A stretch of 40,154 bases of DNA. It comes from Cladosporium sp. IMV 00045 (lineage: Eukaryota > Ascomycota > Dothideomycetes > Cladosporiales > Cladosporiaceae). Location of the stretch: contig MSJI02000003.1 in the NCBI GenBank assembly GCA_001931905.2, positions 1-40,154 of the forward strand, in the 5' to 3' direction. Below the pieces are notes generated by a model. That model was not told the origin of the DNA. It saw only the letters and a program-made list of their open reading frames with translations, and searched no databases. This document shows positions 18,204 to 40,154 of the stretch, piece after piece; positions within the stretch are counted from its first letter, which is position 1; each line of letters starts with the position of its first letter. Both the position numbers and the translations under genes were made by a program.

Positions 18204-18962
18204 CTAGCCCTGCTTCCTTAGAATCTCCAACATCTTTGACACATCTTTTCCTTCCAGCTTCATCTGTTCCGCAATCTCTATGGCCGTTAGACCATTGTGA
18301 TCGGTAGCATTCGGGTCGGCACCGTACTGTAGCAGCATTCTGACTATGCTATGAAAGCCTTGGCTAACAGCAAAATGGAGGGGCGAGCCAGTATTACCAA
18401 GCCCGTAAGCTTTGGCTTCGGCTTCTGGACGGGCTCCGCCTTCCAGGAGATGGAGCACCATAGCATCTTTTCCCTTCTGGGCGGCAGAAGCTAGCGCACC
18501 TGTGCCCTTTGTAAGGGCACCATACTTCAGTAGCAGGTCGAGCGCGACGGGATCTGTATATAGAAACGCGACTAGCGTAAGTGGAAAGGCTGCTGCGTCT
18601 GGGTCCATGTTTGGATCTGCACCGGCTTCAAGGAGGAATCGTAGATACTCGGTGTTTTGTCGACCCATGCAGGCTACGATAAGAGCTGATCCGCGATGGT
18701 CGAAGGGCATATTTATAATACCAGGATCTCGGGCCAGTAGGACCTTGGTGATAGGAATGGAGCCTGTGTAAACCGCGCCTCGGAGGATCTCCTCGTTCAA
18801 GGGAACAGCAGGGTATTGATCCAGAAGAGAGTTGATAGTGCCAAGATCCTCGCTTTTTGCTGCGGTCACCAAGAGTGCTTGAATGGCTTCTTCTGATGGG
18901 GACTCATGCTCGCTCGGAAGAGTTTCCATTCGGTCGGTGTCTCCGGTCGAAGCCATGGTCAT
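18204..18962 (-). CDS. small ankyrin-repeat protein
   Basis: Single-exon, intact frame of 252 residues (250 if the second ATG at 18956, in the better context ACCATGG, is used). It carries five or six ankyrin-type helix pairs. Recognisable turns are RGSALIVACMGRQNTEYLRF with LLEAGADPNMD, and GSPLHFAVSQGFHSIVRMLL with QYGADPNATDHNGLTAIEIA. There is no catalytic domain, signal peptide or membrane segment. Proteins of this kind act as binding scaffolds, and the partner is unknown. It lies in gene-poor sequence but has no premature stops. It could be a stand-alone gene or a fragment of a larger NLR repeat tail that gained its own start; the clean N-terminus (STGDTDRMETLPSEHESPSE) favours the first. 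Confidence 0.82.
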   Translation of the reverse strand: MTMASTGDTDRMETLPSEHESPSEEAIQALLVTAAKSEDLGTINSLLDQYPAVPLNEEILRGAVYTGSIPITKVLLARDPGIINMPFDHRGSALIVACMGRQNTEYLRFLLEAGADPNMDPDAAAFPLTLVAFLYTDPVALDLLLKYGALTKGTGALASAAQKGKDAMVLHLLEGGARPEAEAKAYGLGNTGSPLHFAVSQGFHSIVRMLLQYGADPNATDHNGLTAIEIAEQMKLEGKDVSKMLEILRKQG

Positions 18963-21558: not shown

Positions 21559-22653
21559 ATGCCTTCGATTGTCGTCTTCGGCGCTTCTGGTTTCATCGGG
21601 GGTAAGTCTCTGCACCAACATCTCACCTCCATTTCAAATCTGACTTTCTATTCAAGCACCGTGCGTGAGAGCCATTAAACATGCCCACCCAGACTGGCCT
21701 GTGACCGCATATGTGCGCAGCATAAAGCACGAAGATGAGCTTAAAGCGGCACTGAAAGCAAACCATATCGTAGTCGGCGACTTCGGCGATATCGAGAAGA
21801 TCAAGCATCTCAGCAAAGAGCACGACGTCGCCGTCAACGCTGGCAGCTCTTTCACAGGGGATCTCGTCGAAGCTATCATTGCAGGACAGAAAGCAAAGCC
21901 ATCCGGCCAAAAAGGCAAATTGCTCCACATCAGCGGCGGCAGCAACTAGATCGACTTTAGCACCTGAGGCAATTTCAACCCAGAGAGCAAGGTCTGGAAC
22001 GACTCCAAGGTTGAAGACATCAAGGCAATCCACAAGGACATGTTCAATGGACAGTCTGATACCCTTGTCCTCGAGGCCGGAGCGGACAGTGCTGTGGAGA
22101 CGTACATCGTCTGTCCCTCGGTCGTGAACGGAGGTGCCAGTGTCTCTTCCCCCACCATGGGCATTGGGTATAGTCTGATTGTCGGCAACGCGAAGCCTCT
22201 CGGTTACGTTCCTTATGTCGGTGATGGAACGGCTGTTCTCAGTACGGTGAGAACCCTCCTCGCATATTTGTACATGCACCCGGCTACTTGCTAACAGTGT
22301 CACAGATCCACGTTCTCGACCTTGTCAGCTTCCTGGTCAAGATCTCCGAGGTTGCCGTCAAGGGTCCGGCCCAGGGCACGTCCTACGAGCGTTACTTCAT
22401 GCTGGAAATGAGCAGAGTGCAGTAGAAGGATCTGGCGACCGAGCTCGCGAAGGTCATGCATACGAGAGGTCTTTTTCCGAGTCCGGAGCCGAGAAACGTA
22501 CCTTTCGAACTGGCAGGAGAGGGAGAGGTTAAGCACCTTGTTGCTGCGAAAATGCTCTTCCAGGGCGATCGCGCGACTGCGATGGGGTTCAAGCCGAAGC
22601 AGCCGAGCATTCTTGCTGAGATCCACGCGAATCTAGGGAAGGTGCCCATCTGA
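21559..22653 (+). pseudogene. NmrA-like / NAD(P)-binding Rossmann protein, three in-frame stops
   Basis: Three exons, 21559-21601, 21657-22246 and 22306-22653, join in phase through introns with GTAAGT/CAAG and GTGAGA/CACAG ends. The N-terminus MPSIVVFGASGFIGAPCVRA is a classic Rossmann nucleotide-binding loop (GASGFIG). YVRSIKHEDELKAAL, VAVNAGSSFTGDLVEAII and GKLLHISGGSN follow, as in NmrA-like or short-chain epimerase-type proteins. The frame then meets TAG at 21947 and TGA at 21965, stays coding (NPESKVWNDSKVEDI; YIVCPSVVNGGASVSSP), and meets TAG at 22423 before ending at 22653. The codons could originally have been CAG, CGA and CAG. Splice sites and protein sense are otherwise intact, so decay looks recent. 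An intact copy would be expected to be a cytosolic oxidoreductase or redox sensor. Confidence 0.85.
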
Positions 22654-23439
22654 TCAGGTTTTGGAGATTCGAGAAATACTGGTTGGCGGCAGCGTTGCTA
22701 GCTCGTGGAGACAACAAGGCAAATCAGATGCCTAATCGTGCACCATTCTAGCCCTCTACATCCGAAAGTAGAGTGACTGTTGAGATAGCTGTTTGCAGCT
22801 CGGACTAATGAAATCTTGATGCGTTACCACGCGTAACAGACAGGCGGGCTCCTGGCCACTTCTGCTGCACTCGAGGCTTGGTGTGGTGTGATTTTGATAA
22901 ACCACGTCTGTTTGCTGGTAATCACATACGACCACAGGTCAGTAAAAACTGGGCATCCCGTCCGAAAACCCCCAATCTCACCGTCGTAGGTCGTTCCAGG
23001 ATCCCAGTGCTGCCTCCACATCGTAGTGTAAGCTACCCCGGCATCCAAGTCCTGGTTCAACTCTGTAGCCTAAGGACGAGTCGCGCTTTGAATTTAGGAA
23101 AAGCTGAATTTCATAATGAGATCGCTGTTCATATAGCTGATGCGCAACCTAGAATTCAAACTCCTCACCTCTGATCCCTTGTTGAATGGATCTTTAGCGG
23201 ATCGAGGAGTCTGGAACTTGTCTTCAATAGTACTTCAGTGGCCTGCTGCAAGGCCGCAACCTCAAGGTGCTCGCCCTGGTAATTTTCTGAAAACGATTCG
23301 CTAGAAATTGGTTCATAGCAGTGTTCTTCACAGGCTATATCGCCAGGAATAAAGGGTTCATCGCTTTCGCTTTCCATTTGCTTACATGAATCCTGAAACC
23401 AAAATCCAGCATTCAGGATCTAGGAGTAAAGATTAAGAT
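22654..23439. other. intergenic, nothing recognisable
   Basis: Normal base composition with short conflicting frames. A 70-codon acidic minus frame at 23165-23377 has no recognisable family and is not called. The G+C drops sharply after about 23440. Confidence 0.45.
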
Positions 23440-24289
23440 TGTGCCTAAAATGTACTAATTCTATATTAAGCATATAGGCTTAAAACATAAGAGATTAATT
23501 AATTAGCTATCTACTATAGCTTCTAAGAGCTTCTTTAAATAGATTAATATAGTACTAAATATACTTATATTATTAGTATTTTAACTAAATTTTAATACTA
23601 TAATACTTTTTTTCTAAAACTATTAATCAAGAAATAAAATTAAGAAAAAAAGTAATAAATTATAAGTTACTAGATAAATAGCTTATATAGAAAAAAAAAC
23701 TTAAAAGCTATTAAAAATAATTATCTAATAAGTGATTATTTAGATTTTTCTCTAATTTTAATAATTTCTTAAAGTTTTTTTTTTTTAAAAAAATATTAAA
23801 AATAAAACTTTAGAATTTATAATATTACTTTTTATTAGAAAGTAATAAATTATAGAATTTTAATAGAGACTAAAGTAGATATATAATAAGAACTAAAAAT
23901 ATATTAGAATATACCTAATATTAATACTATTAATTAATTAATTTAATAAGAAACTACTAATATAACTAAAGCTATATATTACTTTTTATTTATATAACTC
24001 TTAAAGCTAAAAGTAGTTTTCTTAATTTATAGATTAAAAAAGACTAATTACTAAGTTTAGGTATCTAAGAGTAATATTCTTAATAAAAAATATATTCTTA
24101 GATAATAAAATTTACTTATATTACTATTAATAGTATCTATATATATTAGTAATAAATAAATACTAATCTTTTACTAAAAGAAAGCTAATACTAATATATA
24201 TACTAGTCTATATTATATACTATATAAATATATAGTTCTAGATATAGTAATATATAAACCTAATATTATAAATTAAATAGCTGTCCTAC
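23440..24289. repeat. A/T-only block, probable RIP-destroyed transposon relic
   Basis: Roughly 850 bases are almost entirely A and T, dense in TA steps, TATA, TTAA and TTAATTAA, with hardly any C-A or T-G steps and no usable reading frame. Normal composition returns abruptly near 24280. In filamentous ascomycetes such blocks are repeats converted by CpA-to-TpA mutation. What the repeat was cannot be read. It lies directly upstream of the DUF3435 recombinase gene and so may mark or cover the left end of that element. Confidence 0.85.
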
Positions 24290-24397
24290 TCAATCTGAAG
24301 CTAATTTAGGACACAAATGCATGCTACTTAGTATGCATATTCGGAGGTCCCGAACGCGCCTTAGGTTACATTCAACTTCATTTATAGATACGCTAGC

Positions 24398-26972
24398 GTG
24401 AAGCGCCTTGCGACTGTAGCACTGCGTCTGCGTCTCGCTAAGATTAGGCTGGAGAAGCGATAGAAAGCCACTCGCGCTGACATTGAAGCTATACCGACTA
24501 TGCCTTAGCGATACGGCGTCGCTAGGCGCCGAGACTCTTCTCGCAGTGTTTAGTCTACTAGAAACTCCTCGGGCTTTCGCTAGCCATTCTCACTAGCAAC
24601 GATGGTAGTTAAAGCACGTCAAGAACACCGCTATAGCGCAGTTTGTAGCGGCGGTAGTAGAGGCGATGGCGACGGGAGCGTCGCCACAACGCGGTCCAAG
24701 TCCGCAGATCTCGCAGAGGAGTACATACGACGAGAAGCGGAGTTCGACAGCATTGTTGCGACACGCCGGGTATACGCGAAGAGCAGCAGTGAGATGCTCA
24801 GGCGCATGGAGGCATTCTGGCTGGAGTACGTGCCTGTCCCGAAATATCATTAAATCGATCAACTGCCCTTTTTTCGCTGACAGGAGTCTAGGTATTGCGA
24901 GCTTACACGCCAAAGTTCGGCAGAAAAACTACGAGACTTCTCTGTGGGTACATTACACAGCTTCTTCCATTGGCTTCTACGGACAAGGAAGAGTACACTG
25001 CGGAAAGCGAGCACTCTCTAGACTTACTGGAACACGTTATGCCTCGTGCGTAAAGCGGAAACTGGGCTTCATGTGATTGCGCCGGATCTCAAAGCAGCTA
25101 TGGTCGGGGTGAGTCGGCATTCGACAAGACAGGAGGTTCGAGACATCGTATATATTAACCACTCACTAGGTGCGGCAGACCTTGGCCGCAGAGTTCGCAC
25201 TCGACACCGAGAAGGTTGAGAAACCTATCGTTCGCGTAGAGGACGAGTTCGAACTTTTGAAGACGATCTGGAGTTCAACGTCGATGAAGCTCAAGCATGA
25301 GCGTATCCGCGTGCAGCTCGCTCTTATCGCACAACTCGCTGGAATCACTGGAAATCGACCGGGGGCTTTGCTGGCATTGCGTTACGGCAACTTGAAAGTC
25401 ACGCTCCTTCGCGACCCGACTGGCGGAGACAACCCCAAAGTCCTACTTGAGGTTACCTTCAAGGTGTCGAAAACATACCATGGATCCAAAGAACCGTAAG
25501 TAAACCAGGTCGGCTGTAAGCTCTCAATTCGCTGACCATGAGAGTGTCGGGTTATTAGAAACACCTTTCCCATTCCAGAAGTATGTTCAGAGTCATGCCT
25601 CTCTCTCTGCCCACAAATTATGCTCCTTGGCCTCCTTTTCAACGACGCAGCCTTCGAAGCTCCGCGACTCGTTGGACCTAAGGAGCTCTTCCAACTGAAG
25701 ATCCCTCACGGGCTGAACCAACTACTACTGCCTCTCAAAGACTCTTTAGCGCATGTCCCAATATTCTAAGACTCTCAGCCTACAGTCAACGGCTTCGAAA
25801 TGTCTACGACTCGGGCGATGCCGGCTGGCAAATTGAGAAACTGTTTCGCGAAATGGGGCCAGATCACGGGGTTCGAGTTGCCGCTCAAGCCTTATGCCTT
25901 CCGGAGAGGAAACGGCGAGGCTCTTGATAGTAGTAGTGAGTCTTACAGTTGCCGGCAAGCTGAGTATGTACTGACTTACTTAGATCATATCAGCGATGCC
26001 TAGCGCAACGTGATATTACAGCACGCGAACTCTCGGGTATTCGAGCGCAACTACCTCCCGCGGTATATCACACAAGACACCCAAGCAGCTTATCGAGGCT
26101 TGGAGCCCCAAGTCGAATTGACCCGGCTCGCCAGCGGCATGAAGCGTACGATCGACACTCGGCAACCTATGCGACTTACACTAAAGCAGCTTGCAGCAGT
26201 CGACCAGCATCCCGAAGTTCGGTTACTGTTCCGCACCAAGAACGCTCTCAAGAAACGAATTCGCGCAGAATTCGGAAGCGTCACTCAGGCTACCAAAGCC
26301 ATGGTTTACGACACCTATCGCCAAATCCGCAAAGACTACGAAAAGACACGCAAAGCACATAGTAGAGCCGCTATGAAGGCTCTGCAGGCCGGGTTCCGAA
26401 AGCAACAGGCGCTGTTAGATATTGCTAAGCAGCTGGGTCGAGCTGGAACGCCAAATCCTCTCAATGAGGATTGTGAAGTCGTTGCCGAAACAGATCCCAA
26501 CACGATAGCAGAGCATTTGAGCGAAGAGCGTACGGCTGTACTTCTTGCTCTGTTTTCTCCATCGTCCCCCGACATAAACGAGGAACGCCGCCGGCGCTGC
26601 GAAGCTATCAATGCTATCACTACGCTATGCAAGCAACAAGAACCGAGCTTTCCGAGTCGAAATAGGCATCAAACGTCATCGTGTATCGTCAAACAGACTG
26701 CTTCGCATACGACTATACCAGAGATTCTTAGTCGTGAGTGCACCCCAACGCAGTGCATCTTCTGTCTCGGCAATGTTTCTCTCCCTCAAGCGAAACGCCG
26801 CAAAGCCTTTCGCGATCGCTATACTCTTCGCGACCACTTCGTACGCATTCACCTTGATCGACTTCCTAACGACCAGCCTATCCGGTGTCCGCACCCTTCG
26901 TGCTTAGAGCTGCTCCAGCATAAGCAACATCTACGCAATCACGCTCTCCAGGTTCACTTCACTCCCACTTAA
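24398..26972 (+). pseudogene. DUF3435 tyrosine recombinase (Starship captain type) with C2H2 fingers, broken
   Basis: From ATG 24602 the exons 24602-24829, 24884-25108, 25170-25495, 25559-25935 and 25984-26972 join in phase, giving 715 codons including the final stop. Family signatures include LRDFSVGTLHSFFHWLLRTR, then LAGITGNRPGALLALRYGNL holding the first conserved Arg. SKEPNTFPIPE, KWGQITGFELPLKPYAFRRG and VILQHANSRVFERNYLPR hold the His and the likely nucleophilic Tyr. The tail has paired C2H2 fingers (CIFCLG...HFVRIH; CPHPSC...HALQVH). In-frame stops are TAG 25019, TAA 25767 and TAG 26001, all one C-to-T step from CAG or CAA. The same frame continues upstream to about 24398 with four more stops, all TAG, so the original N-terminus was probably longer. 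The product would cut and rejoin DNA to move a transposon. The first donor (GTGCCT, 24830) is weak. Confidence 0.88.
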
Positions 26973-27576
26973 AAACATTCGCGCCGGGGTACGGGGTTTT
27001 GGGATGGATATATATTACAGTTCATAGTTGCGTTATGAAGGGCTTATTTCGTTTTTAGTAACATTGTCCTAATGCATGATAATCACATGCGAGATACGCA
27101 TCATTCTTTATTAGTTTTCTGTTTCTTGCTATCCTTACAGTAATCTATTGCATATGGCGTGAGAGCCATATGATATAGTTCACCCTCTGGATATAAGACC
27201 ATAACAATTTAGAGACCACGTGGAAGCTCCCTTGACGTGGCTCCTAGCCCGTCAAACGTCTATGACCCCGAGGATCTACTTGCGATACTAGTGTTAAGCC
27301 ATAGATCAATAGTTACCTCAAGGAACTGCCTAGCCCATGGTTAATATACCCTCGGGTGCCTAGTGCCCTAATAGTCAGCTTACCTAGTAGGCATGTGTAC
27401 ATTAAGATAAATTCGTCCTTAGGGTAGTGTTCACTTCGAGGTACTAGTTACTTATAGGCATTATCTACCTACGCACGCGTTGCCCATAGGGCCGGTGCTA
27501 CCTTAAATCATAGCGTATCCATATGGTCTACAAACTACGAAGCTAACGCTTCCTCGAGGATAACAAAATTCAATTA
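26973..27576. other. intergenic, nothing recognisable
   Basis: A T/A-leaning stretch with many TAG and CTAG motifs lies between the recombinase 3' end and the DUF3723 3' end. It looks mutated rather than constrained, and I see no gene, tRNA or clear repeat. Confidence 0.45.
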
Positions 27577-30180
27577 TCACAATTCTTCGCTCTCATTAGT
27601 AAGGTACCCTCCACAAACCGCTATGAAATGCTTCCAATCTTCTTCTTTACACTTGAACGATAAAGGCGGAGATATTCCACGAATTTCAACCTTCATCATA
27701 TCACTAACCTTCTTTACATCGTATATACTAAGTCCGCGATTGAATTTGATACTCTCTACTTCATTCCCATTACGATCCAGCAAAACAAGACAGTATACAT
27801 TTTCGGTGCCGGTCTTTTCGCAGACAAGAGTATAACAGACATTTTGCCTGGTGATAGGCAGAGAGTCGGCCATATGCCTCACTGCTTTTGGGGAGACCAC
27901 TAGGATCTTAGGATGCTAAGACTGTTCTATCGCGCGCCAGGCGTGTTCTGATCCGTTACCTGAAGATACTGTCCGATTCTGCCCATGAGCATACATAAAA
28001 AGGCATGTCCGATTAGTGTGGATGGCTTTCAGAATTCGGTCTAGCTCGTTTCGTCCAGAAGGCCCCCCTATAAACGGTCTGATTATCACATCTTGTGTAC
28101 TTTCATTAATGACACACCACTGTCCTGGTTCCAATTTCTTCTCTGCTTGCGCTGAGAGACTGAGACCAGGCTGTTCGAAGTCTGCTGGACCATCCGCTGC
28201 TCGTTTGTTCTTTGGTAGTGTGATATGGTTAGATGGTTGTTCGTCAAATGGTGAAGCCTCGTATAATTCTTCTTCTTCAGCCCATTAACCAATCGCTTCG
28301 TGAGTGGGGTCACCTAAATCTGCCGTCTGGACATCCATCGCGCTTGCCGTGTACGTCGAAGTACTGGGATCGATAGCTCCGTTTGTCCGTGAGTTGTCGG
28401 TAGCATCATGACTTGATGTCGAAGCAGGCCTGGCACTTAGAACTTCGCCTATTGTACTGTCTTGAATCGGATCTTGAGAGGCGTCTTGCATGTTTATATT
28501 AGACTCCACGTGTTCAGGCATGGTCTGGTGCTCAGTTGATAGTCCCTTAAGCGAAGTGATATCCCAGAAAGAGCATAGAAGATCTCGGGCTATAGCAAAG
28601 GTGGTGATGAATTCATGTTGTAGTGCTTCTGGCTCAGGAATGATATACTTCAGGAACAAGTATTTCCGATCAGTACGGAAGCTGCGTTTAAAAGGTCGAT
28701 TGCTCCGAGCTTTAACTAGGACGTCGCTCACGTCGGTCGTTGATGATAGGGCTCTCGTCGCTATTGGGACGTCCGGATCGCCTGGATGATCCACTCTATG
28801 AAACTGCGCTTTAATCTTTAACGACTTGAAACCCAGATGTTCTGCGAACATCGCGAAAGCATTGACTCGGTCTTGCATTGGCCGGCCTGTCTTAGGCTTG
28901 GGGAGCCTAGCTTCTTTGCGTGGCTGGCTAGCCGCGATGTCGGACAACTCAGGAAAGTGACGCATCGCATAGAGCCATAATTGAATATATGTCTGATAAA
29001 AAGAATCCTCTGCGCCATTAAAGATGTCTCGGAAGGCTTTCTCAAAGCTCTCTCTGTAAGACTGTCGAGATGTGAGAAGGTTTCGCATCGAGCTATGGCA
29101 GATTTCAAGGTAGATAGTGTCCTCAAAGAAAGAATGGAACGACAAGATCCTAGTAGACTGTAGCAGCCTTTCGAGTAGCCCGGATCGTTGACTGGTATCT
29201 TGGACTCCTAGAAACAACCTATAGCGCGCGTAGCCTGCTGAACAGTCTCTGCTATATAGCGCTTCTGTAACGGCTCTGCGGTCAGACAAGGATATACGTG
29301 GGAACCAGAGTTGCAGAGCCTGAACAGTTTGTGGCGTCACTTCGGACGGGTTCTGGTCTCCAAGAATTTCTATCCACTAAGACTTCATTCTCGAAAGGTA
29401 GAACCTAATCTCCTGTATGAGTTAGCCAGAGCCTTGAAACCAAAGGAGGCTAATCTACCTCCCACGTATGCAATGGTAGCACCCTATTCATAGCGCCTAG
29501 CTGAAAGTCTTGCCAGAGTCCAACGAATGGTAGAAGGCTATTAAGGACTTTGATAATACGACCGTGATCTGCCTTCTCGAGTTGAAGAAGATTTCTTCTC
29601 TTGCTAGGGCTGAGTCGCGCTTGCCACTTCTCTACAGCTCGCTGTTCGTCGGCTTCCTGAGCTTGGCGATAGAATCGAAAAATGTCGCCGTCCGAGAACC
29701 GAAGTTCGTTTGTATAATCCTCTACTAGTGTGTGACGAAGCGATACTAGCATGGCTATAAAGGCGCAAGGGATTAGAGTCTGTTGCTGCTCTAAGATTTA
29801 CTGTTTCGATACCTACATTCATCGTATAAGCTTACGATCCACCATTGGTCTCGCTCCAAGAGGAATTCTCTTGCTGCAATAACGCGATGCTTCCCGTGTA
29901 AACATAGGATCGTATCAGCGCTTGATAGTAATAGTTCCGTTGGCTGCTCGCTCCTCTGCCATTCTCCTAGCATAGTACTCGAGATGATAGCTGGGATTCT
30001 ATTCTTTGGAGCCTCTCGTTGACATTTTTCGAGTTTGAAGACGTTGATCAACCGCGCGACATTCTTCTCGTCGTAATCTCGGACCCCAGACTCGAACCTG
30101 AGATGCTCGAGTCTGATTCTTGCGGTGCCAAGAAAGTACTCAGGTGTCACAGATTGGTTCTTTCTCTCAGACATAGTCAT
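27577..30180 (-). pseudogene. DUF3723 protein gene, three in-frame stops
   Basis: Exons 30180-29817, 29754-29459 and 29412-27577 join in phase (introns of 62 and 46 nt with GTAGGT and GTAGAT donors) to 832 codons. The start is MTMSERKNQSVTPEYFLGTA. The DUF3723 core is clear: CLHGKHRVIAAREFLLERDQ followed by WWIVSLYDE, then VEDYTNELRFSDGDIFRFYR, then HTWEEIRFYLSRMKS. Stops are TAG 29379-29377, TAA 28287-28285 and TAG 27918-27916; sense resumes after each (WIEILGDQNPSEVT; WAEEEELYEASPFDEQP; HPKILVVSPKAVRH). All are one CpA or TpG transition from CAG, CAA or TGG. The C-terminal 200 residues are acidic then globular (FIGGPSGRNELDRILKAI). The biochemical role is unknown; DUF3723 is a recurrent Starship cargo family. 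Its 5' end faces the phospholipase gene 264 bp away. Confidence 0.88.
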
Positions 30181-30444
30181 TACTTAGGTAGATAGATGGC
30201 AGCTTGTCCCGCAGAGGACGACCTCCTCTCTTATGTAGCACATCAGACGGTGCGGAGGCTTTTCGGTCTGGACAGGTGGGCTGTCTCCATAAGGCAGCTA
30301 TGGATCCGCAATTAAGCGACCTGATTTAAATATAGATCTTACTAAAATAGAGCTATACAATTTTAAATCGACTTTAAATAGTCAGAAGACATTGCCTTAA
30401 CAGTCTGATTCAGTCACGCAGACTCTTCGTCGCTCGAGTGCATA
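30181..30444. promoter_or_regulatory. divergent intergenic region between DUF3723 and phospholipase genes
   Basis: This 264-bp space separates two head-to-head start codons, so it must have held both promoters. The middle (about 30320-30385) is A/T-rich with TATAGATC, TTTAAATC and TTTAAATAG steps that could serve as TATA-like sites on either strand. No specific operator is recognisable. Confidence 0.5.
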
Positions 30445-33400
30445 ATGGCCAAGCCTCACTCATCCCTTATAAGGCCTCAAGGGCGCCGGGCTTGGACACC
30501 CATATCTGTATATTGCGCTACATACACGATGAGGCGCTGCAAACATGAAGCACTGGTCGAGCTCTCTGCTGCAGCGGATCCGTGCCTAGTTGACCCTCAT
30601 CGATTACGTCGCTTAATTGAGTCATTGCCAAACCCCGAAGACCAGACCCCTTTGATTATTGCCTACTACGGGACCCAGGAAAAGCGTATGGCCCTTAGCC
30701 AACTATTTCCAGCTAACGACTCCAAGACCCGGGATCGACGACCAGCGATGTGTAAGATATACACAGACGCGATTACCTCCCACCATAGAAACCCAATCTT
30801 CTTTGCCGATATTGACCCTGATTGCGGGCCACCTTCTCAGGAAACGATCGCCCATTGCCACCAATTCCAGGCGTATAGGATAAGCCCTAGGCCGTATAAG
30901 ATTCAAATCAATCATATGCTTATGAACTGCTTGCTTCTGCCGTTCACTGACCTGATCTGCATCTTCGCCGATGATCTTGGTGGACTTGCCGTAGTGAAAC
31001 AGCATTTGCAGCATTGGGCTGATTCTGGCATCGAAGCTGCTCCCCAGCAACAGACTACAAGAGTGGTGATCATCATATCGAGTCCAAGTTGCGGTCAAAT
31101 CGATGACTTTTGGGTAGCTATAAGAGATTCTTGCCTTGACAAAACCTTTCCCGAGATCAGCTTCGAAATTTTGTCAGGCCAAGCAGAGGATAATGTTCGG
31201 TACATCCCATTGCGAGTCTCTCTCCTCCAGGAAAAGCTAGGACTCGCTCGGCAAAACCGCCAAAACCGCATGCAGCTATTCTCCGGGCCCCACCTAGCAG
31301 CATTATTCTCACAATGCTTAGCGCACATCGCTACCAATCCGCTCAAGCCATTTCAAATGTTACAAGCAAGTCGGCAGGGCATTCCACAGCCTCCAGATTT
31401 CTCTGAGTGTGTGGCAGCGTTCCTCAAGGCTACTTATGACCAAGACATACCTTATTAGACTGTTGCTTGTCTCCTTGCATCAAGCTTGCTGATGCAAGCT
31501 TGTCCGCCATCTGCACATAGTAAGAATGTCATTCGAGAGCGCTATCATTCTGCTGCCGCGGCTGATGCCTTCTAGTGTTTCCGCCACAAGAAATTTTCGA
31601 TGCACTTTTCCGACCTACACTTGCGAGATGCTTTGAAAACTATTTGGGACATAAAGACATTGCCTCCTCGAATACAGCGCACAACGTCTTGCGCGGACAG
31701 ATGCTTTCGTATGTGGCACGGGAATTTGCGACTCATTGGACGGCGCTATGCGAAGAGAGAAGCTTGGCTGCCGAAATGCATCGAGCACGTCTTGAAGCCC
31801 AAGCTATGCGAGAGCATTGGGGCGGTCTTAGTAAGAATACTTTCTGCGCAATCTGTATTGTCCGACGCCCAGAGCATGTGATGAAGTGCCGACATTCTAT
31901 TTGCGATCTCTGCGTCGAAGTGTTTGGTGTGCCTCGGATAACTGAGGAGTACACCTTCACGTTCCCAAGCTGCCTTTGCTGTGGCAAGATAGCGGATCTT
32001 CTTGTTCGATTGAAGCCCCCGACAGCCGGCCTTTTAGGATTCTAAGTATTGATGGTGGCGGTGTGAAAGGGATTGTCCCATTGGAATTTCTCAACTTGCT
32101 ACAAAGATCTTTAGGTTCTAGCTGCCGCGTGCAGGATCTTTTTGACCTTGCACTTGGCACTAGCGTTGGTAAGCAAATGCTACGCTCTAACAATTTGGAA
32201 TCTAGCTAAGAGATCTTTAGGTGGGTTGGAAGTCCTCTTCCTCTTTGCCAAAAGCTGGGACATTCCAATCGCTCTAGCGACTTTCCGCCGCCTTGCAAGG
32301 CAGTGTTTCACTGCATCTTTGAATGGCAAACTGTCATCATTAGCTCGGTTCGGCTCGTACATTCGGTGTCTGCTACGTGACAGCCTATATAAAGCAGAGA
32401 TACTTGAGGAGATTCTGAAAGATTGCTTCGGCAATCATCTTCGAATGTTCGACTATCCCGAGACTGGTATCTCCCAGTGCAAACTAGCGGTTACGGCCAC
32501 AACCACATCAACGGCTTCTATAAGGCTTCTAACGAGCTACAATGGCTCGATCCTCGAGAAATCAAAGCGAGGTATTGCCCGCAGAAGTGGATATTGTCTT
32601 CTTCAAAATATGCTAACGCCTATCCAGGATACCGTATCGTTCGACCAGACGAACCAAAGCTTGAACCTCTCGTTTGGCAAGCGTATGTAGATCATCCGTG
32701 GTATGATCACGACCACAGCTGATATAAATATAGGGGACGAGCAACTTCGGCTGCACCAGGGTACTGTGATACTACTGTCTGTCTTGTGAGTGGTCACTAA
32801 TGTTTCTAAGAATGTTTCCGCCCCTGCATATACCTGGCTTAGGAAGATTCCAAGATGGCGCATTGAGACATAACAATCCTGTCAATATTGCGCTATGGGA
32901 AAGTGATCGCATCTGGCCACGTGAGACTACAAAGGATGTCGTACTTTCTTTGGGCACCGGCACTGGGCCTAGTGCAACGACGCCGCGTACAGCAACATCG
33001 ACTCCACAACTCGCATTCAGCGAGAAGTTTATCCCCCGCCTCTTCCGTTCGTTCCTCACAGGGTTGGACGGCGAGGTGACATGGCACGAACTTCTACATC
33101 ATCTCGAAAAAGATGTCCATGATAGATACTTTCGGCTGAACATCAACATGGCTAGCCAGGAACCGCGGCTGGATGACGTGCGAGCGATACAAAGCCTTTC
33201 GAATGCGGTCGAATCCCATAAAGACGATCCCAAGATCATTGATATCAAGATGGCACTTCTAGCATCATGTTTCTTCTTCGAGTTGAAGCGAACACCAACC
33301 TTTGATGCTTCTGGTTTCTACGTCTGTCAGGGGGAGATTCGAACTCGTATGGATCACACTAAAGTTTTCATGGCTCTGAGGCAAATGGGTACATCTCCTA

Positions 33401-33798
33401 TAGAGTTTTTTAAAGACCACGTCTCCCTTAGACCGTCCGATCCATCGACCGATGTATGTCCGGGATGCTACAGATTCCGCAAGAAAGTCTGCTTTTTCAT
33501 CAGACATCCGAGCGAGACAATCTCAATCACCGTTAGCATGGGCGACTATCAGCGTAGCCTTAGTGGATTTCCGAAGACGATGACATGGTTTGCGGCTACC
33601 CAAAATCTCACATCACCGTTCTATAGAACACAGAATGTAGCACTGCCTGAGAGTCTCTATGACTGCTTCAAAACATCAAAGGTCACTAGCACAGCGTCGG
33701 TCTCTCAGAATTCTAGCAAAAGGACAAGATGGAGCGGCACTGAGAACCATATCAAACGGAGGATGCCACGGTTCCTTTCTTTACCTAACCTTGCTTGA
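30445..33798 (+). pseudogene. patatin-like phospholipase with RING-like zinc finger, one stop and one frameshift
   Basis: Exons 30445-31519, 31576-32168, 32221-32571, 32628-32682, 32734-32760 and 32811-33798 give about 1030 codons once one missing base is allowed for. The N-terminal 350 residues have no named domain (TPLIIAYYGTQEKRMALSQL). A Cys/His-rich RING-like segment starts near residue 448 (CAICIVRRPEHVMKCRHSIC, then CLCCGK). The patatin domain follows: SIDGGGVKGIVPLEFL is the oxyanion loop, GTSVG carries the catalytic Ser near 554, KLAVTATT and GRATSAAPG follow, and DGALRHNNP carries the catalytic Asp near 715. Stop TAG 31456 sits where CAG would restore the frame. The frame is lost at the T run 32032-32035, between LKPPTAG and RILSIDGGG. 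The original enzyme would hydrolyse acyl lipids; this family is a common Starship cargo. Confidence 0.9.
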
Positions 33799-33890
33799 AA
33801 AGCTATCCTATAACAAGCTAGCTGTCTTTATTTTGACCTTTTTGCTTTGTTCTGTATCATTTCCCATGAGTACTTCTTCTTCTTTGATAG

Positions 33891-34297
33891 GCTCAAGTCT
33901 TGGTCTATGATATTCTAGTATCCTTCCCATCTGGACAGTCTCTAGCCGTTGAAACTATAGATAATCAGGCTCTGTGCCATCGCTATCAAGCCGTGCGTGA
34001 CATGGAGTGGGATTGCAACCATCATACCTGACTGATTGCGGAGATAACGGGCTGATCGAAGTCAAGGTTTATGAGGAAGCCGGTGACGTGTTGTTCTTTG
34101 ATCCAAGAATGGACTTTTCCGTTATCAAGCCGCTGATTCAGGTACAAGCAGTTACGATCTGCAAGATAGCAGATCCGTCGATGTATGCAGATAGCGTGTC
34201 TCTTAGACCGGCAATATGTGTCGACTATATCAACGCATGCTTCTGGAAAAACACCTCTAGAAGCGAAAAAGATGATACAGACATCCTCCTTGATTGA
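33891..34297 (+). pseudogene. possible fragment of a broken gene, family unknown
   Basis: From 33891 a frame just after a plausible acceptor (TTTGATAG) reads SFPSGQSLAVETIDNQALCH and onward until TGA at 34029. A second frame, 34007-34297, then reads EVKVYEEAGDVLFFDPRMDF and FSVIKPLIQVQAVTICKIAD. Both look protein-like, and the switch suggests a small indel, but no family is recognised and no start is assigned. It may be part of a gene that followed the phospholipase. The flanks at 33799-33890 and 34298-34443 show nothing. Confidence 0.3.
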
Positions 34298-34443
34298 CCA
34301 TGGCTAATCACAGCAAGACATACTTGGATGCAGTAGCTCTTCACTGATCTTGTCTACCTATAGTAGTGGGAACGACTAGCACTATATATAAAGCTAGGAT
34401 GGCCGACCGCATAGGCTACCTGGAGATAAAAATAATCTAGAAC

Positions 34444-35070
34444 ATGATGACCCCCTCTAAAGTCCGTTTTGACCCGATACTAGTAACCGCGTACATTCGA
34501 GCCCCGACGTCCTCCGAGGAAACGGCTCTGAAATTATTCCAAGAGCACGCACTCGAGTGCTCTACATGCAGAGGTTTCGTGGATGACCGGCATACTAGCT
34601 GGTCATGTCTTTTAGGAGCTCGTAGAGTCGATGCCCTTAGCGAGTTAATCCGCTGGAACGGCGGGAAATTTGTCGCAACTTCATCTCGGGCAAACGTATA
34701 TGACACTGTTGTTGAGATACCGAGACGACTTGTACTGTCTCGTAAGATACTCTATATTGCAGCGTGTTCGCCCCATCGCTACCTAAACCGGGCTCGAGAA
34801 AGCGGCAAGTTGCCTACGACGTTTTTTCGAAAGGAAAAAGCTCCACAAGAAGCAGATCCAAATATAAGGACTATGACAGAAACGCTAAGAGATGGTTTGC
34901 ATTTCGATAGCCGGAACAGGGACTGCAACAGTCACCACATCCGCTCTCGTCGTTCCCGTCGAGAAGGAGAGTTCCAGAGATATGAGTACACATTTAATCA
35001 TGTTATCGCAGCACAAGGGCAGCGGGTCGAAATTCGAGGATATGTCCGACGCCTATACAATTGTACATGA
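34444..35070 (+). CDS. orphan protein with CxxC motif
   Basis: Single open frame of 208 residues (ATG pair at 34444 and 34447). I do not recognise a named family. The N-terminal part (LKLFQEHALECSTCRGFVDD) resembles a recurrent kind of fungal orphan protein found in repeat-rich regions, where an acidic helix leads into a Cys-x-x-Cys pair, and a third Cys follows in SWSCLLGARR. The second half is basic (SHHIRSRRSRREGEFQRYEY) and could bind nucleic acid. It has no signal peptide or membrane segment. Its 3' end faces the coiled-coil pseudogene only 15 bp away. No premature stop is seen, unlike most of its neighbours, but at this length chance survival of the frame cannot be excluded. Confidence 0.5.
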   Translation: MMTPSKVRFDPILVTAYIRAPTSSEETALKLFQEHALECSTCRGFVDDRHTSWSCLLGARRVDALSELIRWNGGKFVATSSRANVYDTVVEIPRRLVLSRKILYIAACSPHRYLNRARESGKLPTTFFRKEKAPQEADPNIRTMTETLRDGLHFDSRNRDCNSHHIRSRRSRREGEFQRYEYTFNHVIAAQGQRVEIRGYVRRLYNCT

Positions 35071-35085
35071 TCAATCTAGTGAATC

Positions 35086-36021
35086 TTATGCTCTCGCCTT
35101 TCCCTTCTTCTGATCTTTCTTCTTTGGAGGCTGACTATTATCTCTCTCCGGTGCGTTTATGACAGACGGCGGCTGTACCCCGCTTCCACCTTGCGGCCTT
35201 ACAACATTCACATTCGGATCAAAATGACCAGGCTGACGCATGCCGGAGGATTGAAGATTGGCCTGTGGAGGGGTATGGGTCGATGTGAGTGTCGGCGGAA
35301 ATTGAACTTAGGCTCCAAGAGAAGTGGTCTGCTTTGATGTCTAAGCATCAAGCTCGAGGCGTAGTCGATCGAACTCTCCCATCTGATTACGATAAGCGTG
35401 ATGTAGAGTTGTAGTTGCCTCGTCAGAATCTGAAGATTTACTGATGGTGAGAAGCAGTCGAGTGACTAATGAAAGTTGCTCGCGAGTCAATCTGTGGTTC
35501 TCCCTTTGAATGAATAGTTGCTCTCGCAAAGTTGCGTTCAGTTCATCTTTGCTAGTTAGCATACTATTCAAAGCTCCTTTCTGGTAGCGTTCCACAGTAA
35601 GCCCATGTTATGTATGGAGAAGCTCATTCTTCAGGCGGATTGTGTCGCTGGTTAAGGACTGTTGTTGCGATTCTAGGAAAGTTTTACTGTTTGCGATCTG
35701 GACTTTCTCCGCCCACACGTCGTTGAATATTTGTGCTTGTCTCTGCTGTCTTTTGCCTTGCTCAACTATCAATTGATGCAAGTCATCGTTCTTGGCCATA
35801 AGCCAATCACTATCAACGTAAAGCAGAGGCTGCCTCAAAGTTAGTCGAGGAATATGAGAACTGGGGGGGCTCGACAGATACCGCAAACTCATTGCAAGTG
35901 CCTTGCAGAGATGCAATTCCGGCGTTATTATCCTCTTACGTGGAGCCCCCATTTGCATCCACTGGACTTGAAGATGCGCCAACGAGTGTGGTAAGTGATG
36001 CCTGGCTCTCGATACCAGCAC
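35086..36021 (-). pseudogene. coiled-coil protein with Pro-rich, Lys-rich tail, three in-frame stops
   Basis: One frame runs 36021-35086 (312 codons) and is interrupted by TAA 35610-35608, TAG 35343-35341 and TAA 35310-35308, all one C-to-T step from CAA or CAG. Between stops the sequence is consistent: an N-terminal basic part (GAPRKRIITPELHLCKALAM), long Gln/Glu/Leu-rich helices typical of a coiled coil (LIVEQGKRQQRQAQIFNDVW; NATLREQLFIQRENHRLTRE), a Pro/Gln-rich spacer (TPPQANLQSSGMRQPGHFDP), and a lysine-rich end (KKKDQKKGKARA) that resembles a nuclear localisation signal. No named family is recognised. The N-terminal start is uncertain, and an unseen intron near 35850-35900 is possible. 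It may have been a DNA- or chromatin-associated cargo protein. Confidence 0.55.
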
Positions 36022-36288
36022 TCACACTACTGGGGCAAGAGACCATGTCAATGTCGCACATGGTAGCGTAATATGAATATAGAGCTAATATCCAGTCTAT
36101 GAAACCTTGAGCCTTTAGCGCCAGACCTATATATATGTCTCCATGTATATATATAGCGTAGTGTCAGTACGTGAAAATAGCACAGTACTTATTTTTAGTA
36201 CACTCCATCACCATATGAATTAGCGCTAGTCGTCGACACAAGTATATTAATGATATGGAACAGATTGCTACTATCTAGCTAAACAAAC

Positions 36289-36867
36289 ATGCCGCTTCGT
36301 ATTCTCGTAAGCACTTCATATCTTATCGTTCGGCTTGCGTCCGCTTTCGAAGTCCATGACTTCGGTGGATTATGTTCCGATGCAGGCCGTCAAATCTCCT
36401 GGGATAAGCCATTCGCTAATGCATGGACGACATCCGGAGACTCTGCTCCGTTAAAAGTAACAGGTGTTCCAAAGGATGAGACAATTGCAACTATCACGTC
36501 TACGACAACAACCACCATTACAGTGACGCCGTCACTTGTGATTAGCAAGCCAGATATCAACTGGGATGATACATTGCAAGAGAAGACAGAATGCCAAAGA
36601 GCGACCAGTCAAAACTCAGGGAGACTGCCTTTTGCGTTCGAGAGCACAGGCGCTCAACTATGGTCGTCTACAAATGGGTCAGCGATCTTTTCTATGGGTT
36701 CAAGCGGTACCGGACAGCCCCATATTGCGACTGCGTCTTATACATCGCTGTATTTTCCTAGCGGTCAAGCTAGCCCTACGAGCTCTGCATGTCGCCTGAG
36801 TCCAGGGCAAATTTGGATCATAGTGATCTCTTTAGCGCAATCGATGAGGCAGTTGAGTCGCGTATGA
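36289..36867 (+). CDS. candidate secreted protein, unknown function
   Basis: An open frame of 192 residues begins with a likely signal peptide (MPLRILVSTSYLIVRLASAF), probably cleaved after about residue 19. The mature part is rich in Ser and Thr, with a run of Thr (ITSTTTTTITVTPS) and repeated Ser-Gly-Thr-Gln segments, as in O-glycosylated wall or secreted proteins. The C-terminus has a hydrophobic stretch (GQIWIIVISLAQ) after a small-residue region. That could be a GPI-anchor signal, although it ends in basic residues. It has only three cysteines, so it is not a typical Cys-rich effector. Upstream DNA (36060-36280) is A/T-rich with TATATATA runs. No family is recognised, and the call rests on composition. 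Confidence 0.45.
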   Translation: MPLRILVSTSYLIVRLASAFEVHDFGGLCSDAGRQISWDKPFANAWTTSGDSAPLKVTGVPKDETIATITSTTTTTITVTPSLVISKPDINWDDTLQEKTECQRATSQNSGRLPFAFESTGAQLWSSTNGSAIFSMGSSGTGQPHIATASYTSLYFPSGQASPTSSACRLSPGQIWIIVISLAQSMRQLSRV

Positions 36868-37744
36868 GAAGATCTAGGTAGTGAGACTTTGAGACTTTCA
36901 TGAGCTGGCCTCTGAATTCATAGGTTTGGGATCATTTTGATGTTATAGATCGTTTACATAGTCAAGCTCCTTTCGCGTTCCCCTATACAAACCAAGCCTA
37001 TTTAGATTCACTTTCCTTTCCTGCTTATTGCCCGAGTGCTTGGTAACGTCCGTCCAGCTATGGAGGAACACCTAGTGAGGCGGATTGAGATGCACTGGCA
37101 TCGAATATTTCTCTGCTGTTCGCAAGGAAAATGGCTCGAAACTAACTTTCTGCTATTCCCTAAGGGTTCCTCCATGGAGTTGAGCACATTTAAAAATCAC
37201 AATGATGGCGTGCGTGGCGCAACCCTTGTCTTTATTCCCGCTCTTCATCTCCGCTCCATCACTCTGTCCACACTGTAGACCTTTACATAAGACTAATGAG
37301 GTCAAAAGTAGGTTTCTCAGGTTCGCCGTCATGCGACGCACACGATGCATGTGTCTTCAGGCTGTCGATCGCCGTTGCTGAACGCTAATGCACCTATGTA
37401 AGCGCTGAACAAGGCTTTGCGAGGAGCACGCAGATAGGCTGACCGGTGGCAAGCGGGGCCGATGTCGCGGCTTGAATCTCGTCTCATGCGTGCGGCTTAC
37501 GGCGCGCGGCTACATAGGCGAGTCCCGAACCGCAGCCGTGTGTACCTGGGCTTTTGGCAAGGAGCACGACGGATGCCAGTGACAAATATCATGAGGCAGG
37601 TCACGAGGTGACTGCGGGATTCCATAGCTTTCCATGCACACAAGTAGCTGGCAGCGAGTATGTACCTGACGCATGTAAGACACCCGGGTCACTCTAAAAC
37701 CTGTCAGTATAGGTACATGCACGTTGTACAGCAAGGTTCCAAAC
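36868..37744. other. intergenic and 5' flank of the transposase
   Basis: 36868-37380 has only short frames. 37380-37744 is C+G-richer and is probably the 5' flank of the pogo-type element. I searched by eye for a terminal inverted repeat matching sequence beyond 38905 and for flanking TA pairs, and found none that convinced me. Confidence 0.4.
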
Positions 37745-38905
37745 ATGGACAAAGCTAGTTAGGCTCTGGCGCAAGGCGTTCCGACCGGCATGTCCAGCTC
37801 ATACCGCGCAGTTGCAGATCATAGCGGAGTCCCCTGCTCCACGCTCTACTACCGCGCTCACGGCCGACAGTCGATCGAAGCAAAAGCTCAGGCTCAGCAG
37901 TACCTTGCACCGTTCGAAGAGAAGGCAGTAGTGCAGTTCATCCTGCAGATGGCCGAGCTCGGCACTCCAGTGCGGATCAAGTACATACCCTCGATAGCCT
38001 TTACTGCCACCCGCCATAGGCCCGAAGCAGATAGACCAGTCAAGCCTCCGAACAAGAACTGGGCTAAAGCCTTTAAGAACCGTCATCTAGAGCTCAAAGC
38101 GAGGAAAGTCAAAGCATTAGACTGGAATAGGCATGAGAAGAACATATACCATAAGATAGAACACTGGTTTGAAGTGATCGGGAAGGCGCTGGAGGACCCA
38201 GCCGTGCTCGAGGAGAATGTATATAACATGGATGAGACCGGGGTAATGCTCTCCAAGCTTTGGCCCATTAAAGTACTCGTGGGCAGAAAGGACTTACGAG
38301 ACTACCGAGGTGCGCGGGTTAAGCGCATAGTGGTGACCGCTATCGAGTGCATCAGTGCTAACGGTAGGTACCTGAAACCCATGGTCATATGGCTAGCGAC
38401 GACGCACAGAAGCAACTGGACGACGTTTCCCACGCCCGGCTGGCACTATGCGTTCTCCGAGTCCGGTTATACGGATTCTCAGATAAGCTTCGAGTGGCTC
38501 ACACGCGTTTTTGATCCGCAGACCAGGGACCGAGCGAACGGGAAGCCACGCTTTCTGATTTGCGATGGCTTCGGCACACACGAGACGCTAGAGATCCTGG
38601 AACGTTGCTTCGCTAATAATATCCGCTTGTGCCGTCTCCCTTCTCACACTTCCCACAAGCTCCAGCCTTGTGACATCGCGGTGTTCTCTCCTTTGAAAGC
38701 AGCCTACCGCGACGCAGTCGAGCGTCTTGAGCGGGGAGGTGTGAACACCATTGGCAAGCAGCACTTTACCTGCTTGTACAGACAGTTGCAATATCGGCTT
38801 GAATTCACACACTCTTTGACAAAGTCAAGTGTGGGTCATGTTTACGGGGCCGAGAACGGCCCGCTCATAGTTCCTGGATTCGGACCCTTGCGAAGGGGCT
38901 GCTAA
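37745..38905 (+). mobile_element. pogo/Fot1-type DDE transposase, truncated, one early stop
   Basis: Tc1/mariner-superfamily (pogo/Fot1) transposase. An open frame of 371 codons starts at ATG 37790, but the same frame begins at ATG 37745 with TAG at 37760, where CAG would give MDKASQALAQGVPTG; the original start was probably 37745. A helix-turn-helix (RAVADHSGVPCSTLYYRAHG) and a CENP-B/Tc5-like DNA-binding part (NWAKAFKNRHLELKA) precede the DDE_1 domain. Counting from 37790, the catalytic Asp residues are D148 (YNMDETG), D259 (LICDGFGTH) and D295 (PCDIAVFSPLK), a D35D spacing with all three present. After KQHFTCLYRQL the family resemblance ends and the last 45 codons look unrelated, so the C-terminus is truncated or frameshifted. 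It would excise and integrate its element at TA sites. Confidence 0.9.
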
Positions 38906-39204
38906 ACGTCCGCTTTCCAGGCTGATAAGCAACAGCCAGCGCGTAATTTACCCGCTTCAACCGCTCTGAGTGAGTTCTGCATTGAAAAAAATGGCAACAC
39001 ATGTTGATATCTCTCACGACAATAGAATGGAAGCGGGTTTCGACTCTACATCAAAGGTATGATCAAATTTGTTCACTTTACAACCCACCACACGTACGTG
39101 GCAAATGTCTTCAAGATCCGAAGCAGCGTGGGGCGACAAACGGCTTCTTACTTCACTATTACTAACAGAAAAGACAGCTTTCAGCAAAGTGCAAACCCGG
39201 CATA
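38906..39204. other. intergenic, nothing recognisable
   Basis: About 300 bases between the truncated transposase and the 3' end of the WD40 NLR relic. No terminal repeat or gene is visible. Confidence 0.4.
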
Positions 39205-40154
39205 TCAATCACTTATTTCCCAGAGCGAAACCATGCCAGATGAGTGACCTAAAGCCATGAATGCTCCCCGGACCGCAATCGCATCTAGTAAAGGGCGGAG
39301 CTCTAGAGGAAGCCAGATCATCTTATGATCCTGTCGGTGGATCCATTCGCCTTGGACTTGAAGGTTGGAGGTGCAGCTGCTCATCGGCTGAGCTTTCTCA
39401 CAAGTACCGTGCTTAACGAAATCCTCTGCAGTATGTATCGCGCCAGCAGAGCGATGAAAACCAACGTCTGGCACATGGGCTGCGACCGCATACCGGGAAA
39501 CGAGGTGCCCTGGAGAGGGCCAGATAGTCTTTTGAATATGGCGAAGACTCCCTCGTGTTTGGAGGTAGAAGAGCCAGGCATCCTCACCAGATGGCCCGCT
39601 CGGCGCAGGCTTCAGATCAAAGATCCCGATGTTTGTTTGTAGGGAAGCCCCGTCTGCGGAAAACTCTAGATCTGATACGTAGCCTCTGAGATCGATTATT
39701 TCATGGTGCAATCCAGTGTTCGAATCCTAGACGATGACTGTCTTGTTATCAGATGCCGACGCCAGCTTGCTGTTGTCCGGCGAGAACTGCACCGCTGTGA
39801 CCACGTTCGAGTGGCCTTTGAGTTTCAGCAGCTTAGGACTCTAATGCTCAGGCACTCGAGGAGACTGCTTGATGCAGTCAAGAAGTCCTGTCTTCTCCAG
39901 AAGCTGTCGAACCATGCTTGTCGATGGTGCAAACAGTGCGGCCGAGACATATGTCTGCAGTGGTGCCTGCTCAATGCCAGACCTTACATACATCAAAAAT
40001 CTTCTGCAATCGTGCACGAGAGCTCGCACTAATGGGGATTGTTCGCTCTAGGTCGCATGTTAGTCCTAAGCTCCAGGGTCTCATTATAGCAGTCATGTTG
40101 TGGTTTGTGTGACATACCTCGATCGTTGCCTCTAAGGAGGTCATGGCCTCAATG
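39205..40154 (-). pseudogene. NLR (NACHT-WD40) C-terminal end, two TGG-to-TAG stops, cut by window end
   Basis: Exons 40154-40118 and 40047-39205 join across a 70-nt intron (donor GTATGT, branch ACTAAC, acceptor CCTAG). The read-out IEAMTSLEATIE then FLMYVRSGIEQAPLQTYVSA with LFAPSTSMVRQLLE is the helical stretch that links NACHT to the WD40 propeller in fungal NLRs. One WD40 blade follows (KLKGHSNVVTAVQFSPDNSK), then a degenerate blade (DLRGYVSDLEFSADGASLQT). Next is the typical closing module (LQVQGEWIHRQDHKMIWLPL; ALGHSSGMVSLWEISD). Stops TAG 39843-39841 and TAG 39729-39727 stand where the family has Trp (WSPxLxxLxGH and TVxVWD), so each is TGG mutated to TAG. NACHT and the N-terminal domain lie beyond the window. 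Such proteins act in non-self recognition. Confidence 0.85.

What the first reader, a model, noticed from the sequence alone, without database searches (positions are those of the whole stretch)
24290..40154. A decayed Starship-like giant transposon: captain, DUF3723, patatin-like phospholipase and NLR together
Four families that recur as the gene kit of fungal Starships lie within 16 kb. The DUF3435 recombinase is first and inward-facing, next to an A/T-only block, with no housekeeping gene between them. The set with orphan ORFs, a coiled-coil gene and a secreted-protein candidate as cargo was not obvious from open frames alone, because every hallmark gene is broken.
Basis: partly seen in the sequence, partly recalled or inferred. 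Interest (0 to 1): 0.85.

Follow-up and report, generated by a model that had tools for sequence, protein, structure and literature searches.

The report
Broken giant fungal transposon in 5S gene
A decayed giant fungal "Starship" transposon appears to sit inside a ribosomal 5S RNA gene of a fungus with two gene sets, and the matching stretch of the other set still carries the uninterrupted gene, which shows where the element begins.

Summary
The window is all of contig C3 in a 49.9 Mb genome that looks two-subgenome. Contig C448 matches window 11,409-22,964 (main blocks 84-87%) and the match stops inside a 5S rRNA gene: the window keeps 5S nt 1-41 (22,924-22,964), C448 has the whole gene. This is the left half of an insertion/empty-site pair; the element starts at 22,965, not 24,290. 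A DUF3435 tyrosine recombinase begins about 1.6 kb inside and points inward, followed by DUF3723 (-) and a patatin-like gene (+).

The only other DUF3435 locus found (C759) shares its contig with a DUF3723 and a right terminus running into 5S. Five of five such right ends meet 5S at nt 35, so both kinds of end carry CCGTCCG. C791 repeats the divergent DUF3723/patatin pair and has such an end.

Recombinase and DUF3723 each have three stops in aligned positions; other "breaks" look like introns. The AT block is RIP-saturated. Not shown: this element's right end, an NLR (one WD40 stretch, no NACHT found), the captain's family. A new member of a known kind. Open puzzle: 22 such left junctions, two DUF3435 loci.

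The parts
11409..22964 (.). Left flank shared with C448 (host DNA); window 15,811-18,105 has no match there
   Evidence: blastn blocks, main identities 84-87%
22924..22964 (+). First 41 nt of an interrupted 5S rRNA gene
   Evidence: Alignment to the complete 5S of C448:11,368-11,487 (-) (Rfam RF00001, 76.2 bits). The truncated piece itself does not reach Rfam's threshold
22958..22964 (+). CCGTCCG, candidate direct repeat / crossover core (5S nt 35-41)
   Evidence: Also present at the start of the 5S remainder in 5 of 5 right ends of sister elements
22965..23007 (+). Left terminal sequence of the element
   Evidence: Shared after the same 5S cut in 22 places incl. this one; 9 aligned
23441..24290 (.). 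AT-only block, RIP-saturated repeat
   Evidence: GC 0.15, (CA+TG)/(AC+GT) 0.13; partial copies on C199 (two) and C33
24603..26972 (+). DUF3435 tyrosine recombinase (captain), broken; start codon inferred
   Evidence: Pfam 25,236-26,624; 39 homologs; stops; catalytic residues kept
27580..30183 (-). DUF3723 gene, broken
   Evidence: Pfam; 12 homologs; stops
30445..33798 (+). Patatin-like gene, several exons or frames, divergent from DUF3723
   Evidence: same divergent pair on C791
34444..36867 (.). Orphan ORFs (34,444-35,070 +; 35,608-36,021 -; 36,289-36,867 +), cargo candidates
   Evidence: No Pfam match
37745..38769 (+). Nested pogo-type transposon, cut short
   Evidence: HTH_Tnp_Tc5 and DDE_1; 75% DNA match to C759:8,975-9,991
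39640..39831 (-). WD40-type repeat piece; rest of the gene would lie beyond the contig end
   Evidence: WD40 E 1.6e-6

Best explanation
Window 22,965 to at least 40,154 is the 5' part of a decayed Starship that was integrated by a DUF3435 tyrosine recombinase into a dispersed 5S rRNA gene on one of two subgenomes. Integration would be a site-specific crossover at CCGTCCG (5S nt 35-41), leaving 5S nt 1-41 on the left and nt 35-120 on the right. Order: 5S head, terminal sequence, AT block, captain (+), DUF3723 (-), patatin-like gene (+), cargo; the right end lies beyond the contig. C-to-T change of the RIP type, saturating the AT block and weaker over the captain, and stops in recombinase and DUF3723 have silenced it. 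Shown: the left junction against a complete 5S, gene order, stops, composition, and right ends of sister elements in 5S. Inferred: that this captain made the crossover, that this element's right end is of the same type, and that RIP did the silencing.
For: Homology with C448 stops at 22,964 inside 5S, and C448 has the complete gene. The same cut plus shared terminal sequence occurs 22 times (up to 3 mismatches), reversed control 0. Five of five right ends run into 5S from nt 35. DUF3435 end to end, catalytic residues kept, first gene with a Pfam match inside the junction, pointing inward; DUF3723 and patatin-like gene follow. C759 holds DUF3435 (+), DUF3723 (-) and a right end in that order; C791 holds DUF3723 (-), patatin-like gene (+) and a right end. 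5S-targeting Starships are in print, and direct repeats over 6 bp go with 5S targeting (PMC12153272, passages).
Against: No contig found holds both kinds of end; the window has no such right end. 22 left junctions against two DUF3435 loci and five right ends is unexplained. The C759 recombinase is distant (26-38% to homologs of the window's; very long branch), so the C759 right end may belong to another captain family. The far flank is disordered: C668 stops short and C33 leaves the C448 sequence 0.8 kb before the 5S. A terminal inverted repeat is weak. RIP-like composition is patchy rather than a smooth gradient. No ferric reductase and no NACHT found.
Confidence: 0.84

Rival explanations
1. 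The 5S junction belongs to a separate short repeat (5S nt 1-41 plus about 42 nt), and the DUF3435, DUF3723 and patatin-like genes are a solo recombinase and neighbours that merely lie 1.6 kb downstream.
For: 22 such junctions but two DUF3435 loci; in several copies similarity fades after about 90 nt; lone DUF3435 genes are common (PMC12134995, passages). In C863 and C55 the terminal sequence is repeated about 92 nt further on.
Against: The upstream flank and 5S head are shared with the complete gene of C448, so a 5S gene stood here first and was cut at this base. Right ends beside DUF3723, with a DUF3435 or a patatin-like gene on the same contig, also sit in 5S and share CCGTCCG. Some copies (C811, C709, C79, C745, C932) resemble each other well beyond 90 nt.
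Confidence: 0.1
2. A Crypton-like short tyrosine-recombinase element with no cargo; the other genes are unrelated.
For: A tyrosine recombinase with a C2H2-type end at a site-specific junction.
Against: It matches DUF3435, the captain domain, end to end, and DUF3723 and patatin-like genes recur with 5S-type ends elsewhere in the genome.
Confidence: 0.02
3. Assembly chimera or rearrangement: two unrelated stretches joined within a repeated 5S sequence.
For: 5S is multicopy, the contig ends in the element and the far flank is fragmented.
Against: The base after the cut and about 42 nt beyond are shared by 21 other 5S cuts in 19 contigs; these are not a normal 5S continuation.
Confidence: 0.04

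Closest known systems
Osiris Starships (Enterprise family), Aspergillus fumigatus (PMC12153272, passages)
   Same: Insertion into 5S rDNA coding sequence, fragmenting the gene; direct repeat longer than 6 bp
   Different: Other host class; broken captain; family of this captain not tested; exact Osiris cut in 5S not seen
Voyager Starship (as cited in PMC10128009, passages)
   Same: DUF3435 and DUF3723; Starships reported to enter 5S rDNA; its target AGAATACAGGGC matches C448's 5S (TGAGAACTGGGC, nt 20-31) at 8 of 12 bases by eye
   Different: Here the shared repeat is CCGTCCG, about 4-10 nt further on; relation to the Voyager captain not tested
Sanctuary, Horizon and Frontier Starships (PMC12506042 and PMC12257634, passages)
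   Same: DUF3435 captain first at the 5' edge with a predicted C-terminal DNA-binding domain (Sanctuary); DUF3723, patatin-like and NLR genes as accessory genes; RIP-damaged captain (Frontier)
   Different: Sanctuary has a 6-bp ATWHCT repeat; its captain starts about 350 bp from the edge, here about 1.6 kb with an AT block between
C759 and C791 elements of the same genome
   Same: DUF3723; patatin-like gene (C791); DUF3435 (C759); right ends in 5S with CCGTCCG
   Different: No stops in the aligned parts of the C759 DUF3435 and DUF3723; C759 recombinase is distant

Membership tests
[quoted passage not shown]
   Pfam; junction at 22,965, recombinase from about 24.6 kb on +; no other Pfam match between in + frames from 24,290 or - frames; + frames of 22,965-24,290 not scanned
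Starship | Recombinase catalytic residues | tested here: met
   Conserved in aligned homologs: R 33/34, K 31/34, Y 34/34, R 34/34, H 32/36, Y 34/36, all kept in the window (37 of 39 homologs aligned; catalytic labels recalled). The gene is broken
Starship | Accessory genes DUF3723 and patatin-like | tested here: met
Starship | Accessory NLR | tested here: inconclusive
   WD40 stretch only; gene runs off the contig
Starship | Accessory ferric reductase | tested here: not met
   No such Pfam match in frames of 24.3-40.15 kb; not every Starship has it and the right part is missing
Starship | Precise insertion, with direct repeats, against an empty site | tested here: inconclusive
   Left junction met; right end of this element not on the contig; CCGTCCG seen at right ends of sister elements only
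Starship | Terminal inverted repeats (not in every Starship) | tested here: inconclusive
   TTNTCACCG between left ends and C759-type right ends, reached by 73-116 of 2000 shuffles for the three best pairs and 317-1932 for the other six
Starship | Captain inside a published captain family | not testable with these tools
   No labelled reference captains; tree of 27 homologs groups the window with Meristemomyces, Baudoinia, Elasticomyces and Friedmanniomyces (93/100, not starred)
Starship | Size of about 15-700 kb | tested here: inconclusive
   At least 17.2 kb on the contig; full length unknown
5S-targeting Starships (Osiris, Voyager) | Insertion inside the 5S gene | tested here: met
5S-targeting Starships (Osiris, Voyager) | Captain grouping with Osiris or Voyager captains | not tested
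   Reference captains not available; Macrophomina homologs at 36-38% are only a lead
Crypton | Short recombinase element without cargo, recombinase only distantly related to captains | tested here: not met
   DUF3435 end-to-end match and accessory genes following

The most novel reading that the evidence does not exclude
The genome carries a large family of elements that enter 5S rRNA genes at the same nucleotide (22 left junctions found) but has only two recognisable captains. Most copies would then be captain-less elements, or stumps, moved in trans by a few captains, with two very different DUF3435 proteins serving the same 5S site.
Probability: 0.25. Interest if true: 0.72.

Novelty: new member of a known kind. 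Interest (0 to 1): 0.52.

Why it matters
It fixes the left boundary of a Starship to the base by means of an empty site inside the same genome, in a fungus where one gene set can serve as the control for the other. It adds a case, with sister elements, of 5S genes as Starship docking sites. My library search for Hortaea plus Starship listed one paper, a review on coral-reef fungi that I did not read; the species itself is my inference. The excess of left ends over captains makes mobilisation in trans, and the cost of breaking many 5S genes, directly testable.

Tried and rejected
Viral contigs for relatives of the recombinase: 5 stretches matched a pattern, none confirmed. PDB by sequence: two matches at E 0.18 and 0.81, not meaningful. 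Adjacent locus tags between DUF3435 and DUF3723 homologs in public proteins: none seen by eye. Element start at 24,290 (edge of the AT block): rejected, since the homology break and the repeated junction lie at 22,965. C33 as the assembled far side: considered because it seems to continue the flank after C668 ends, not accepted because one search found no right end there and its break lies 0.8 kb from the 5S. Elements that rebuild a whole 5S at their right end: the stretch before three complete 5S genes lying 2.4-3.9 kb beyond left junctions was read; no common end seen by eye. Terminal inverted repeat: weak, not claimed. Right end in the window: CTCTGCCATA absent on both strands, CCGTCCG and GTGTACT nowhere adjacent. 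Pogo terminal repeats by a simple ungapped scan: none. Pfam on window 4,600-11,412, minus frames: nothing; plus frames were scanned only as single long ORFs elsewhere. Structure prediction was not used.

My notebook entries and working titles count the 5S head as 42 nt and the right half from nt 36; recounted against Rfam's gene start they are 41 and 35, as given here.
Full report
What the window is. It is the whole of contig C3 (40,154 bases) in a genome of 49.87 Mb and 954 contigs. The 39 recombinase homologs at E <= 1e-10 are mostly from Dothideomycetes and lichen fungi, the best from Meristemomyces and Elasticomyces. Several patatin loci occur as pairs of nearly equal score, and C448 matches the window's left part at 84-87% in the main blocks. 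Size, two gene sets and relatives fit the black yeast Hortaea werneckii, whose reference genome is a hybrid diploid (PMC5952469, abstract). The species is my inference; no call names it.

The left boundary. Window and C448 run together from window 11,409 to 22,964 (window 15,811-18,105 has no match in C448) and then stop. In C448 that point lies inside a complete 5S rRNA gene, C448:11,368-11,487, minus strand (Rfam RF00001, 76.2 bits, model 1-120). The window has the first 41 nt only, then AAAACCCCCAATCTCACCG; Rfam finds no 5S in the window. With up to 3 mismatches the same cut plus terminal sequence occurs 22 times, the window's included, with 0 matches for the reversed control; 9 are exact to the pattern, 3 have the full 3 mismatches. 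The 21 others lie in 19 contigs. Nine (window included) were aligned: the layout is the same up to the cut and about 42 nt beyond; the short upstream stretches differ, except that C863 and C55 look alike. The element therefore begins at 22,965.

The right boundary of sister elements. I read the first 40 kb of C791 (230,151 bases): DUF3723 at the very start (-), a patatin-like gene (+, about 2.2-4.5 kb) and, from 34,741, GTACT followed at 34,746 by CCGTCCG and the rest of 5S. A search with this end gave six matches: five run through the junction (C791, C385, C759, C374, C97) and one, inside C791 at 30.6 kb, lacks the terminus. All five were read and continue as CCGTCCGCTCTGCC of 5S; C759 ends 32 nt into it. 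Left ends stop with CCGTCCG and right ends are followed by it, the layout of a 7-nt direct repeat at a site-specific crossover. The window has no such right end.

The genes. From left to right: terminal sequence, AT block, recombinase (+), DUF3723 (-), patatin-like gene (+), orphan ORFs, a pogo-type transposase and a WD40 piece. DUF3723 and the patatin-like gene form the same divergent, collinear pair on C791. Searches found two DUF3435 loci (C3, C759) and three DUF3723 loci (C3, C759, C791) (the tool calls counts of large families lower bounds). Both DUF3435 loci have a DUF3723 within 25 kb, a limit set after the fact; crude random estimate 9e-6. On C759: DUF3435 (+, 12.4-13.5 kb), DUF3723 (-, 35.7-37.3 kb), right end at 38.67 kb. 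The residues taken as catalytic (labels recalled) are conserved among homologs and kept here. Many homologs are named C2H2-type by their sources; the Sanctuary captain is also predicted to end in a DNA-binding domain (PMC12506042, passages).

Decay. Three stops lie in aligned positions of the recombinase and three in DUF3723; the aligned parts of the C759 recombinase and DUF3723 have none. Other stops in the recombinase fall in gaps that look like introns. In the patatin-like gene, stops at 31,456 and 32,112 are aligned and two others fall in a gap, and the frame changes near 32.04 kb; introns are not excluded there, and the C791 copy also has one aligned stop. The index (CA+TG)/(AC+GT) is 0.13 in the AT block, 0.97 just before the captain, 1.03 over it, 0.89 after it, 1.13 at DUF3723 and 1.40 at the patatin-like gene, against 1.23-1.28 left of the junction and 1.16-1.41 along C759. 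Finer windows are patchy: 0.83 at 27.2 kb and again at 34.4 kb. RIP with leakage from the AT repeat is my inference from composition.

Results against the reading. No contig was found with both kinds of end. C668 carries the flank expected on the far side (84% over the matched stretch) but ends at 71,663, about 1.5 kb short of the site. C33 seems to continue it (95% over 492 bases) but leaves the C448 sequence 0.8 kb before the 5S and enters other DNA, with an NLR-like gene (weak NB-ARC and caspase-like matches) and long RIP-degraded repeats. The last 164 bases of C668 are 99.4% to C448, so which gene set these contigs belong to is uncertain. The two DUF3435 proteins are far apart. The window's place in the tree is not starred. 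Three left-junction contigs carry complete 5S genes 2.4-3.9 kb downstream on the same strand; only 40 of 143 5S candidates were scored, and the sequence before those three shows no common end. A terminal inverted repeat is weak.

What is known. Starships have a DUF3435 captain at the 5' edge and often DUF3723, patatin-like, NLR and ferric-reductase genes (PMC12506042, passages). 5S rDNA is a target for some (PMC12134995; PMC10128009; PMC12153272; passages each). A RIP-damaged captain is described (PMC12257634, passages). Two primary Starship papers were not held. The kind is known; this host lineage, this locus and the imbalance of ends and captains are what is added. Of papers holding both Hortaea and Starship one was listed, not read.

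Verdict. A degraded Starship in a 5S rRNA gene starting at 22,965 is the best explanation (0.84). Its far end, the NLR and the captain family remain open.

Noticed in passing
G000, 19 other contigs (for example C55:20522, C79:13954, C531:32544, C662:22860, C863:128089): 21 further 5S genes cut at the same nucleotide with the same terminal sequence, far more than the two DUF3435 loci.
   Followed up: partly
C863 and C55, right after the left junction (L046, L057): The terminal sequence appears twice, about 92 nt apart, the second copy again preceded by CCGTCCG, as if a very short element or a second insertion were nested there.
   Followed up: no
window 4600-11408: No counterpart in the genome was reported for this stretch, while its right neighbour matches C448; no Pfam match in the minus frames. 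Possibly another insertion or a region present in one gene set only.
   Followed up: partly
window 15811-18105: About 2.3 kb absent from C448 inside an otherwise matching flank.
   Followed up: no
window 13922-14119: Two 99-nt tandem units (92% alike) in an ankyrin-repeat ORF; C448 gives several overlapping matches there, so unit number probably differs.
   Followed up: no
C33:6.5-25 kb (L052, L051): Long RIP-degraded stretch with low GC and few open frames beside the putative far flank.
   Followed up: partly
window 2231-4584: Chitin-synthase-like glycosyltransferase pieces in two frames, probably a host gene with introns.
   Followed up: no
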